Positions 41,042-46,483 of a stretch of DNA of 64,000 bases are shown here, in pieces. The stretch comes from Rhodococcus qingshengii JCM 15477. Its GTDB lineage: Bacteria; Actinomycetota; Actinomycetes; Mycobacteriales; Mycobacteriaceae. The DNA lies in the NCBI RefSeq assembly GCF_023221595.1, contig NZ_CP096563.1, forward strand, positions 2,276,501 to 2,340,500, written 5' to 3'. Under the pieces are notes generated by a model. It was given only the letters and a program-made list of their open reading frames with translations. It searched no databases and was not told the DNA's origin. The position numbers and the translations under genes are program-made. The stretch's first letter is position 1. Each line of letters starts with the position of its first letter.

Positions 41042-42538
41042 ATGGCTGTCAAGGACGAGCAGGCCGGATCTGGACGGTCGAAGCTGTTTCGAACCAAATC
41101 GATCGAGCAGTCCATCAAGGACACCGACGAGCCGGAAACCAAACTCCGGAAAGAACTGAACTCGTGGGATCTCACGGTGTTCGGTGTCGCAGTCGTCATC
41201 GGTGCGGGCATCTTCACACTCACGGCTCGGACGGCGGGAAATGTCGCCGGGCCGTCGGTCTCGCTCGCGTTCGTCATTGCCGCCATCGCCTGCGGACTGG
41301 CAGCGCTGTGTTACGCCGAATTCGCGTCGACGGTCCCGGTTGCCGGTAGCGCGTACACGTTCTCGTACGCGACGTTCGGCGAATTCGTCGCCTGGATCAT
41401 CGGCTGGGATCTCATCCTCGAATTCGCCTTGGCGTCTTCGGTGGTCGCCAAAGGCTGGTCGCTGTACCTCGGCGAAGTGATGGGCTCACGCAGCCCGATC
41501 GTCGAATTGGGGCCGATCTCATTCGACTGGGGTGCGGTGCTGGTGATCGCTGTCATCACGATCCTGCTCGCGACCGGCACAAAACTCTCGTCGAGGGTGT
41601 CGCTGGTGATCACGGCGATCAAGGTCGCGGTGGTGTTGCTGGTGATCGTCGTCGGCCTCTTCTACATCGACACCGACAACTACTCGCCGTACATTCCGCC
41701 GTCGGAGCCGGGCTCGACGGGAGAGGGCATCCACCAGTCGTTGTTCTCGTACGTGACCGGGGCCGGTGGCAGCACGTTCGGGTGGTACGGATTGCTCGCG
41801 GCAGCCAGTCTGGTGTTCTTCGCGTTCATCGGCTTCGACGTCGTCGCCACGACGGCGGAGGAGGCGAAGGAGCCGCAGAAGGCGCTGCCACGCGGCATCC
41901 TGGGTTCTCTCCTGATCGTCACGGTTCTGTACGTGGCGGTGACACTGGTGCTGACGGGGATGGTGAAATACACCGAGCTCGAGGGCGATACCTCCAACCT
42001 GGCAACGGCATTCGCTTTCCACGACATCACGTGGGCGAAAAACGTCATCTCGTTCGGCGCTTTGGCCGGTCTCACGACAGTGGTGATGGTGCTGATGCTC
42101 GGGCAGACCAGGGTGCTCTTCGCGATGGCACGCGACGGTCTGATGCCACGACGCCTGGCACCGACCGGCAAGCACGGAACCCCTGTGCGGATCACGATCT
42201 TGGTCGGCGTCGTGGTCGCGGTGCTCGCCGGCGTTTTTCCGATCGGCACCCTCGAGGAAATGGTCAACATCGGCACACTGTTCGCTTTTGTTCTCGTCTC
42301 GATCGGGGTTCTCGTGCTCCGTCGGACGCGTCCCGACCTACCTCGCGGATTCAGGGTGCCGCTGGTCCCGCTGGTCCCGATTCTGGCCGTCCTCGCGTGT
42401 CTGTGGCTGATGTTCAACCTGTCGGTGGAGACCTGGATGAGGTTCGTGGTCTGGATGGCCCTCGGCGTTGTCATCTATTTTGCCTACAGCAGACAGCATT
42501 CGATGATCGGGAAGCGTGAACGCGGCGAAATCGAGTAG
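41042..42538 (+). CDS. APC-family amino acid permease
   Basis: 498 residues with 12 predicted helices. The first helix has FGVAVVIGAGIFTLTARTAG, the unwound substrate site of the APC fold, preceded by KLRKELNSWDL. Helix 6 has VFFAFIGFDVVATTAEEAKEP. Resembles cationic amino acid transporters; the Rv3253c counterpart has this annotation. The charged C-terminus is RQHSMIGKRERGEIE. ATG at 41042 follows AGGAGG. Confidence 0.9.
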   Translation: MAVKDEQAGSGRSKLFRTKSIEQSIKDTDEPETKLRKELNSWDLTVFGVAVVIGAGIFTLTARTAGNVAGPSVSLAFVIAAIACGLAALCYAEFASTVPVAGSAYTFSYATFGEFVAWIIGWDLILEFALASSVVAKGWSLYLGEVMGSRSPIVELGPISFDWGAVLVIAVITILLATGTKLSSRVSLVITAIKVAVVLLVIVVGLFYIDTDNYSPYIPPSEPGSTGEGIHQSLFSYVTGAGGSTFGWYGLLAAASLVFFAFIGFDVVATTAEEAKEPQKALPRGILGSLLIVTVLYVAVTLVLTGMVKYTELEGDTSNLATAFAFHDITWAKNVISFGALAGLTTVVMVLMLGQTRVLFAMARDGLMPRRLAPTGKHGTPVRITILVGVVVAVLAGVFPIGTLEEMVNIGTLFAFVLVSIGVLVLRRTRPDLPRGFRVPLVPLVPILAVLACLWLMFNLSVETWMRFVVWMALGVVIYFAYSRQHSMIGKRERGEIE

Positions 42539-42539
42539 A

Positions 42540-42576
42540 TGTACAAAGTTTATGATTTGTCTATCACTTGTACAAA
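42540..42576. promoter_or_regulatory. Inverted/direct repeat in the AT-rich alkB1 promoter region
   Basis: TGTACAAA occurs at 42540-42547 and 42569-42576, and TGTACAA/TTGTACA form an inverted repeat 21 bases apart. TTGTCTATC (42557) and TTGTCTACC (42587) add a second repeat. A likely site for the TetR-type AlkU and for a promoter, within a 65-base AT-rich tract. Confidence 0.5.
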
Positions 42577-42649
42577 ATCAGTAGTATTGTCTACCTCATA
42601 GTGAACTGACTCACAGTTTTCGGGTCGGTCCGAATCGAGGAGGTAGACC

Positions 42650-43876
42650 GTGTCGACGCACGTGGACTCGCAATCCGGCCAGACGCTCCCGCCCGAGCAG
42701 TGGCGTGACAAGAAGAGATACCTCTGGCTGCTCGGCCTCGTGCCGCCGACGGCGGTCTTCATCGCCGTCGGATTGGTCGCGTTGTTCAACAGTCTCGGAT
42801 GGAATGCGGTCTCGCCGGTGTGGTGGTGGATCGGGCCGCTTCTCGTCTACATCCTGCTCCCGATCCTCGACGTCTTCTTCGGCCCGGACGGCGAGAATCC
42901 GCCGGACGAAGTGATGGAGCGCCTCGAGAACGACAAGTACTACCGGTATTGCACCTACATCTACATACCGTTCCAGTTGGTCAGCCTGGTCCTGGCCTGC
43001 TACCTCTGGTCGGCGACCGATCTGTCCTGGCTCGGAATCGACGGGGGACTTGGGCTGATCTCCAAGATCGGTCTGGCGATCAGTATCGGTTGTGTCGCAG
43101 GAATCGGGATCAACACCGCACACGAGCTCGGTCACAAGAAGGACGATCTCGAACGCTGGTTGTCGAAGATCACTCTGGCGCAGTCGTTTTACGGCCACTT
43201 CTACATCGAGCACAATCGTGGACACCACGTGCGCGTCGCCACGCCCGAGGATCCGGCGTCGTCTCGCTTCGGTGAGAGCTTCTGGACCTTCCTGCCGCGC
43301 AGTGTGTGGGGATCTCTGCGCTCGTCGTGGTCCCTGGAAAAGGCCAGACTCGATCGACTGGGTAAGAAGCCGTGGACAATTCGCAACGACGTCCTGCATT
43401 CGTGGTTGATGTCCGTCGTACTGTTCGGTGTCCTCGTCGCCGTCTTCGGCCTCTCGGTACTGCCGTTCCTGGTGCTGCAGGCCGTGTTCGGATTCTGTCT
43501 GCTCGAAACCGTCAACTACCTCGAACATTACGGACTGAAGCGTCGTCGTCTGGACAGCGGGCGGTACGAGCGTGCAGCACCGGAGCACAGTTGGAACAGT
43601 GATCACATCTGCACCAACATCTTCCTGTATCACCTCCAGCGTCACAGCGATCATCACGCGAACCCGACGCGTCGTTATCAGACGCTTCGAAGCATGGACG
43701 GTGCGCCCAACCTGCCCAGTGGGTACGCGAGCATGATCATCCTCGCCTACGTTCCACCGCTGTGGCGAAAAGTGATGGATCCCAAAGTCCTTGCGCACTA
43801 CGGCGGCGACATCACCCGCGTCAACGTTCAGCCGTCCAAGCGTGATCGCATCCTTGCTCGGTACGGAGCAGCGTGA
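42650..43876 (+). CDS. alkB1: Alkane 1-monooxygenase
   Basis: 408 residues, integral membrane non-haem diiron hydroxylase with about six helices. His boxes: HELGHKK (158-164), EHNRGHH (187-193) and LQRHSDHH (329-336), plus NYLEHYG (289-295) typical of AlkB alkane hydroxylases. Oxidises medium-chain n-alkanes to 1-alkanols with electrons from rubredoxin. GTG 42650 follows GAGGAGG. First gene of the alkB1-rubA1-rubA2-alkU set known in R. erythropolis. Its stop overlaps rubA1. Confidence 0.95.
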   Translation: MSTHVDSQSGQTLPPEQWRDKKRYLWLLGLVPPTAVFIAVGLVALFNSLGWNAVSPVWWWIGPLLVYILLPILDVFFGPDGENPPDEVMERLENDKYYRYCTYIYIPFQLVSLVLACYLWSATDLSWLGIDGGLGLISKIGLAISIGCVAGIGINTAHELGHKKDDLERWLSKITLAQSFYGHFYIEHNRGHHVRVATPEDPASSRFGESFWTFLPRSVWGSLRSSWSLEKARLDRLGKKPWTIRNDVLHSWLMSVVLFGVLVAVFGLSVLPFLVLQAVFGFCLLETVNYLEHYGLKRRRLDSGRYERAAPEHSWNSDHICTNIFLYHLQRHSDHHANPTRRYQTLRSMDGAPNLPSGYASMIILAYVPPLWRKVMDPKVLAHYGGDITRVNVQPSKRDRILARYGAA

Positions 43877-44060
43877 TGAGCAGCTATCGATGCCCGGTCT
43901 GTGAATACGTCTACGACGAATCGAAGGGTGCACCACGAGAAGGGTTTCCGGCGGCACGCCGTGGGATGCCGTGCCGGACGACTGGTGCTGTCCGGACTGC
44001 GGCGTGAGGGAAAAGCTGGACTTCGAGCCGATGCCGGCAAATGCGGGGAGTGAATCATGA
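43876..44060 (+). pseudogene. rubA1: Rubredoxin RubA1, frameshifted
   Basis: Reads MSSYRCPVCEYVYDE and on to EGFP normally, including the first CxxC. A base is then missing around 43951-43954 (GCGGC where the family needs GCGGGC for Ala-Gly). As written the frame ends at TGA 44005-44007 after 43 residues, without the second metal-binding CPDC. In the +1-restored frame GTPWDAVPDDWCCPDCG and the rest follow to TGA 44058-44060, overlapping the rubA2 ATG, just as an intact operon would. Either a true loss or a sequencing error. An intact protein would be about 61 residues. Confidence 0.9.
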
Positions 44061-44239
44061 ACGACTACAAGCTGTATCAGTGCGCGCAATGCGGCTTCGA
44101 GTACGACGAGGCAGTCGGCTGGCCGGAGGACGGTATCGAACCGGGCACTCGCTGGGACGACATTCCCGAAGACTGGAGTTGCCCGGACTGCGGGGCGGCG
44201 AAGAGCGACTTCTTCATGGTTGAGGTCGAACGACGGTGA
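44057..44239 (+). CDS. rubA2: Rubredoxin RubA2
   Basis: 60 residues. Two CxxCG pairs bind one iron: C9/C12 (QCAQCG) and C42/C45 (SCPDCG). The conserved WDDIPEDW lies between. It is the intact rubredoxin of the cluster and presumably carries electrons from a rubredoxin reductase (not in the window) to AlkB1. The ATG overlaps the stop of the restored rubA1 frame. Confidence 0.95.
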
Positions 44240-44287
44240 GATGCGTCGGCGACGAACGGACCTAGGTGCGGCGGTAGTGTCGTCACC

Positions 44288-44944
44288 ATGACTTCGACGC
44301 CCACTCGTCTGCCGCAGAAAGAAGCGTCGCGCCTGCTGCTGCGTACGTCGGTGCTCGATTCGATGCGTGAGTTGTTGACCGAGCGCGACTGGTCCGAGGT
44401 GACGCTGACGGTTCTGGCCAAGCATGCCGGTGTGAGTCGTCAGACGCTCTACAACGAGTTCGGCTCGAGGCAAGGGCTTGCCGAGGCGTACGCGCTTCGC
44501 CTTGCTGACGGCTTCGTCGACGCGGTGGACGAGGCCATGGTGGCGAACGACGGACGTGCAGTCGAGGCGTTGACGGCGGGTTTCGGATCGTTTTTCGCCT
44601 CCAGTGCAACCGACCCGTTGGTGATCTCTCTGCTCACCGGTGAGGCCAAGCCGGACCTGCTTCGCCTGATCACCACCGACAGTGCGGTCATCATCGAGCG
44701 CGCGTCGTCGCGGCTTGCGGAGAGTTTCCAGCGAGGGTGGATTCAGGCGTCACCCGCCGACGCCGGAATTCTGGCCAGGGCGATTGCGCGTCTCGGGCTG
44801 AGCTACATTTCGATGCCGCCGGAGTCCGAGGCTTCGGTGGCGGAGGATCTGGGCATACTGCTCGGGCCGTTCATCGACGTGGCGCGCGAGGGCCGCGCAG
44901 TAGAGGGCCGCGCAGTAGAGGGGCGGGCGGGAGAGGGCGTCTAA
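44288..44944 (+). CDS. alkU: TetR-family regulator AlkU
   Basis: 218 residues. N-terminal helix-turn-helix: SEVTLTVLAKHAGVSRQTLYNEFGSR (about 36-60). The ligand-binding domain follows; the last 20 residues are EGRAVEGRAVEGRAGEGV, encoded by a 15-base tandem repeat. Fourth gene of the alk cluster, the TetR-type gene of R. erythropolis and counterpart of Rv3249c, which represses alkB in mycobacteria. Probably acts on the repeats before alkB1. ATG at 44288. Confidence 0.88.
   Translation: MTSTPTRLPQKEASRLLLRTSVLDSMRELLTERDWSEVTLTVLAKHAGVSRQTLYNEFGSRQGLAEAYALRLADGFVDAVDEAMVANDGRAVEALTAGFGSFFASSATDPLVISLLTGEAKPDLLRLITTDSAVIIERASSRLAESFQRGWIQASPADAGILARAIARLGLSYISMPPESEASVAEDLGILLGPFIDVAREGRAVEGRAVEGRAGEGV
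44888..44941. repeat. In-frame 15-base tandem repeat at the end of alkU
   Basis: GAGGGCCGCGCAGTA at 44888 and 44903, a diverged copy at 44918 and a partial one at 44933. Adds EGRAV-type units to the AlkU C-terminus without changing frame. Confidence 0.9.
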
Positions 44945-45004
44945 CCGATAGCCTGGTACACCGATAGGCTTGTGCAGAGTATGCACGTCAACCAGGAGAG
45001 GCAG

Positions 45005-46483
<1,479 letters not shown>

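What the first reader, a model, noticed from the sequence alone, without database searches (positions are those of the whole stretch)
43876..44060. rubA1 of the alkane cluster carries a single-base frameshift
The first half of a rubredoxin (MSSYRCPVCEYVYDE) is intact, but a base is missing at 43951-43954 and the frame closes at 44005 without the second CxxC. Restoring one base gives a normal protein whose stop overlaps rubA2. In reported work, AlkG1-type rubredoxins such as RubA1 do not replace AlkG in alkane oxidation while AlkG2-types do, so loss could be tolerated. A sequencing error is the rival explanation.
Basis: partly seen in the sequence, partly recalled or inferred. Interest (0 to 1): 0.75.

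Follow-up and report, generated by a model that had tools for sequence, protein, structure and literature searches.

The report
Frameshifted rubredoxin beside alkane hydroxylase
A soil Rhodococcus appears to have lost one base in a small iron protein gene beside an alkane-degrading enzyme; the loss is probably real rather than a sequencing slip, and it is of modest interest because the role of this conserved protein is unexplained.

Summary
The rubredoxin gene at 43876 reads in frame to about 43950, has one base fewer than the six relatives aligned, and stops at 44005-44007 before the second CxxC. The rest of the protein lies in another frame and ends in an ATGA overlap with the next gene.

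Two points change the reading. First, this is the partial alkB2-type cluster (no rubB, ahcY downstream). Its AlkG1-type gene is rubA3 in the classic R. erythropolis naming (recalled). A complete alkB1 cluster with an intact AlkG1-type gene lies elsewhere in the genome.

Second, sequencing error is now the weaker reading. Protein P0047 (60 residues, from a contig of another length) needs the same one-base shift, its frame restored by a second change upstream. In 400 kb around the window, 0 of 260 conserved ORFs show a split between frames. Of 101 distinct loci with this gene, only this one is broken.

Most likely this is a recent, real loss of a redundant AlkG1-type rubredoxin. The window may hold the broken intermediate of a compensating pair of frameshifts whose repaired form lacks the otherwise constant EGF loop. 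Reads were not available, so error, or an annotation artefact in P0047, remain open.

The parts
42650..43876 (+). alkB, alkane hydroxylase of the partial alkB2-type cluster, 408 aa, intact
   Evidence: (FA_desaturase); context as in PMC11854999 section 2.2, part 1
43952..43956 (+). site with one base fewer than in relatives (exact base ambiguous)
43956..44060 (+). remainder of the rubredoxin in another frame ([34 protein letters not shown]), still conserved like controls
43936..43942 (+). CGAGAAG: where P0047 must lack two bases to give its in-frame 60 aa (inferred from the protein only)
44057..44239 (+).
44288..44944 (+). TetR-type regulator alkU, 218 aa
44972..46483 (+). ahcY, adenosylhomocysteinase, downstream marker of the manA-ahcY context (start as in the mechanical ORF list)
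   Evidence: AdoHcyase, E 3.4e-147

Best explanation
A one-base deletion in a short G/C run inactivated the AlkG1-type rubredoxin of the alkB2 cluster in this lineage of the R. erythropolis/qingshengii group (group inferred from similarity). The product stops after the first CxxC and cannot hold an Fe(Cys)4 site. AlkB2 is most likely still fed by the AlkG2-type rubredoxin next door, which has its own ribosome-binding-like sequence, and by the alkB1 cluster's rubredoxins and reductase. The loss is recent and tolerated. Shown: the break, the intact neighbours and paralogues, and its uniqueness among the loci compared. Inferred: that the DNA change is real, recent and near-neutral.
For: P0047 (60 aa, 3 members, longest contig 6,431,460 bases; this contig has 6,405,102) reads ...GAPR RVSGG TPWDAV...PANAGSES: both its parts are readings of this window's letters, and it needs the same one-base loss at the same place. 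0 of 260 conserved ORFs (82,603 aa) in the surrounding 400 kb of G000 show a second match in another frame, against 1 of 266 in G001. Of 101 distinct loci with an AlkG1-type gene, 100 are whole and only this one is broken. Differences from relatives in the two halves are no more nonsynonymous than between intact controls, so the loss looks recent. The genome keeps three whole rubredoxin genes and a complete alkB1-rubA-rubA-reductase-TetR cluster.
Against: No reads and no second genome's DNA of this species could be examined. P0047's sources are hidden, so it might be another assembly of the same strain with a shared systematic error, or a frameshift-aware annotation. A two-way ORF comparison flagged 10 split ORFs in G000 (of 323 with a match) and 12 in G001 (of 322), with non-3n indels at the G000 ones. 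The outgroup supported none of the 10 as a break in G000, but had no match for 3. Near-invariance of the gene in 100 other loci argues that it matters.
Confidence: 0.78

Rival explanations
1. Assembly or base-calling error at a short G/C run; the strain's gene is whole.
For: One base in a G/C run is a common error type (general knowledge); the gene is otherwise near-invariant (100 of 101 loci whole).
Against: P0047 needs the same shift in a contig of another length; no frame splits among 260 conserved ORFs nearby.
Confidence: 0.15
2. The window is the broken first step of a compensating pair: a second, two-base loss upstream in a sister strain restored the frame, giving a full-length rubredoxin with EGFPA replaced by RVSG (P0047). 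This adds to the best explanation rather than excluding it.
For: P0047's sequence requires this if its record reads one straight frame; it keeps all four Cys and scores 63.5 bits to Pfam Rubredoxin; the best predicted model stays rubredoxin-like by its strands, mean pLDDT 82.4 against 87.4 for the R. erythropolis protein. The class is known in animals (PMC8935012, abstract).
Against: Only a protein was seen, not DNA; an annotation join would give the same letters. P0047 is the only one of 142 fetched proteins without EG[FY], so function is doubtful. Its five models spread from 59.7 to 82.4 (81.5 to 87.4 for the other), and AlphaFold tolerates damage.
Confidence: 0.5
3. Ribosomal frameshifting rescues the full protein from the broken gene.
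For: A minus-one shift near the site would give the ordinary sequence (read).
Against: No slippery heptamer by eye; no unusual RNA structure (z -0.17); relatives read straight through.
Confidence: 0.03

Closest known systems
AlkB2-type partial cluster alkB-rubA-rubA-alkU (PMC11854999; also Rhodococcus CH91, PMC10304049)
   Same: Gene order, no rubB, TetR then ahcY downstream, overlapping stop/start codons
   Different: First rubredoxin frame is broken
AlkG1-type rubredoxin
   Same: Arg after second CxxCG (CPDCGVREK) in the second half
   Different: The two halves are not in one frame here
Pairs of compensatory frameshifts (Biba et al. 2022, PMC8935012, abstract and section list only)
   Same: Two non-3n indels, close together, restoring frame (if P0047 is real)
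   Different: Bacterial; the broken single-indel state is also seen

Membership tests
AlkG1-type rubredoxin | Arg after the second CxxCG motif (PMC3604635) | tested here: met
   CPDCGVREK in the off-frame half; the neighbour has CPDCGAAK, AlkG2-type
AlkG1-type rubredoxin | Two CxxC pairs in one open frame | tested here: not met
   Stop at 44005-44007; Pfam match 2-24 of 47
AlkB2-type partial cluster | alkB, two rubA, alkU, no rubB, followed by ahcY and thymidylate kinase | tested here: met
   ORF order; Pfam (alkB, rubredoxins, TetR, ahcY); thymidylate kinase named by eye only
AlkB2-type partial cluster | manA, tobH, manB upstream | not tested
   Only a cation-diffusion-type ORF and a permease-type ORF were seen, by eye
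Compensatory frameshift pair | Both indels seen in DNA | not testable with these tools
   P0047 is a protein record; its DNA could not be fetched
Sequencing error | Excess of frame splits in the assembly | tested here: not met
   0 of 260 conserved ORFs with a second frame; two-way count 10 against 12, no excess

The most novel reading that the evidence does not exclude
Two strains of one Rhodococcus species preserve both steps of a compensating frameshift pair in an AlkG1-type rubredoxin: a null allele (this window) and a frame-restored allele without the otherwise constant EGF loop (P0047). Together with intact relatives they form a natural allelic series for testing what this conserved protein of unexplained role does.
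Probability: 0.4. Interest if true: 0.55.

Novelty: new member of a known kind. Interest (0 to 1): 0.33.

Why it matters
A 2022 review says the role of AlkG1-like rubredoxins is a puzzle: highly conserved, yet not needed in assays (PMC8918992, passages). A natural null allele, and perhaps a repaired but altered one, in otherwise complete alkane clusters makes that question testable in wild strains. Beyond this, it is one ordinary pseudogene.

Tried and rejected
Programmed frameshifting was set aside (no slippery site by eye; z -0.17). No plasmid record matches the stretch (megablast). A pattern scan of viral contigs for a stray conspecific contig found none; both tools say that records very near the window's genome may be left out. 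A promoter/terminator scan of 42500-45050 found none. The two-way ORF comparison was noisy because the longest ORF often starts upstream of the real gene, so the three-genome test was used. In one search, 13 of 260 ORFs were flagged in G000: 11 with in-frame stops and 2 with missing N-terminal residues, none with a second match in another frame. For 4 of the 5 flagged ORFs then checked in Pfam the known domain starts beyond the stop, so an over-long start is likely; the fifth had no family. The other 8 were not checked in Pfam. One search's test of ORF 1937 by composition was uninformative; one search shows an SRAP domain at 388-615, beyond its stop at 182. Of the 10 two-way G000 splits, the outgroup had no match for 3, failed to cross the boundary in one open frame for 5, and for 2 covered about the same range as G000's own main frame. 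In G001, ORF 216 is a likely break, being crossed in one frame by the outgroup.

Paper searches for a described break or for strains with P0047's contig length gave none in their listings; not every listed paper was opened.

Full report
WHAT IS THERE. The cluster is alkB (42650-43876), an AlkG1-type rubredoxin frame starting at 43876, an AlkG2-type rubredoxin (44057-44239), a TetR-type regulator (44288-44944) and ahcY. The AlkG1-type frame breaks: 43 residues, one CxxC, stop at 44005-44007. The missing half is present in a second frame and ends in ATGA with the next gene. Pairwise alignments to six relatives (R. erythropolis NBRC 15567 94.1%, Rhodococcus sp. P-2 94.6%, G022 93.2%, IEGM 1359 91.8%, R. 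globerulus 82.3%, ARC_M6 78.1%) all place a one-base gap at 43952 or 43953. Relatives differ at the neighbouring third codon positions, so which base went cannot be told. An earlier multiple alignment mixed strands, because some loci were stored reversed, and was not used.

WHICH CLUSTER. PMC11854999 (section 2.2 part 1 and passages) defines the partial alkB2 cluster as alkB, two rubA, alkU, no rubB, followed by ahcY, thymidylate kinase, mtrA and mtrB. The window fits by ORF order and by Pfam for alkB, the rubredoxins, TetR and ahcY. The genome has a second, complete cluster at C1:864.5-868.3 kb with AlkB, two rubredoxins, a pyridine-nucleotide reductase and TetR. A Pfam Rubredoxin search of the whole genome finds only these two pairs, so three rubredoxin genes are whole. 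Six AlkB-like places exist in the genome. The CH91 authors use rubA1/rubA2 for the alkB2 pair and report the same GTGA and ATGA overlaps (PMC10304049, passages). The name rubA3 is recalled from the R. erythropolis literature.

ERROR OR MUTATION. (a) Searching the protein collection with the broken frame returned 53 proteins. None of the 142 proteins fetched (the latter listing its best 120 of 567) carries the broken tail, but P0047 does share the shift. Its 60 residues are the window's first 21 residues plus the window's second frame from RVSGG onward. RVSGG is the off-frame reading just upstream of the site and TPWDAV the normal one after it. So the P0047 gene, or its annotator, left the normal frame after codon 21 and came back through the same one-base loss. 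Its contig length, 6,431,460, differs from this contig's 6,405,102, so it is another assembly, possibly another strain.

(b) Three-genome test: ORFs of G017 conserved in one frame in G001 were sought in G000 over 400 kb. Of 260 ORFs (82,603 aa), 13 were flagged and none had a second match in another frame. The reverse test flagged 15 of 266 in G001, one of them with a second frame. ORFs under 60 aa, the rubredoxin among them, were outside this test. The two-way count gave 10 splits in G000 (of 323) and 12 in G001 (of 322), no excess. Non-3n indels lie at the G000 ones, and the outgroup supports none of the 10 as a break in G000, with 3 unresolved for lack of a match.

(c) Survey of 110 loci (30 from the genome search, 80 named): 109 have an AlkG1-type match and one (L112) has none. 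Loci, not genomes, are counted: some genomes give two. L052 and L044 were flagged only because of alignment ends.

HOW RECENT. Compared half by half, as synonymous base differences and nonsynonymous codons, the window differs from R. erythropolis by 3 and 0 in codons 1-25 and 6 and 2 in codons 28-61; from P-2 by 4 and 0, then 3 and 2; from IEGM 1359 by 4 and 1, then 4 and 4. The three intact controls against each other show 2 and 0-1, then 2-5 and 3-5 (codons 26-27 left out). There is no sign of long decay, though 61 codons give little power.

CONSEQUENCE. A 43-residue product with two of four cysteines cannot form the iron site (established rubredoxin chemistry). Translation now ends 49 bases before the next start instead of on it, so translational coupling to the AlkG2-type gene is probably lost. 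A GGGGAG stands 6 bases before its ATG, so some independent initiation is expected (sequence). Reviews state that AlkG1-like rubredoxin is not required for activity and that its role is unexplained (PMC8918992, passages). CH91 work found that adding both rubA genes raises alkane degradation in a Pseudomonas host, without separating them (passages).

THE SECOND ALLELE. P0047 keeps four cysteines, matches Pfam Rubredoxin at 63.5 bits against 71.4 for the R. erythropolis protein and PDB chain 2m4y_A at E 4.1e-23. It lacks EG[FY], present in 141 of the 142 proteins fetched. AlphaFold's best model has the same three strands as the R. erythropolis protein, with lower confidence in residues 21-30 (82 against 93) and a wider spread among the five models (59.7-82.4 against 81.5-87.4). 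No fold search was run. If its DNA bears two indels, window and P0047 are the first and second steps of a compensating pair. Such pairs are described in animals (PMC8935012, abstract). I could not see its DNA.

VERDICT. Real observation, reading partly right, most likely a true recent loss of a redundant gene.

Noticed in passing
L091:6150-6360 and L103:6150-6360 (Nocardia neocaledoniensis 760185021; N. rosealba): The two tandem rubredoxin genes are one hybrid: AlkG1-type body with an AlkG2-type C-terminal tail (DFDMHEVSRG or DFDMREVSRG). Another N. neocaledoniensis (DSM 44717, L087) has both genes, so an in-frame deletion between them is likely. It keeps AlkG1 and loses AlkG2, opposite to the window.
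   Followed up: partly
L070, L094, L108 near alkB: Only an AlkG1-type rubredoxin was found beside alkB, no AlkG2-type within the locus. Whether one lies elsewhere in those genomes was not tested.
   Followed up: partly
G000:C2:2705-3835 (L181): A sixth AlkB gene on a second contig, beside an ORF that looks like an IS21-type IstB helper (by eye).
   Followed up: no
44885-44944: The alkU regulator ends in a short repeated tail (EGRAVEGRAVEGRAGEG).
   Followed up: no
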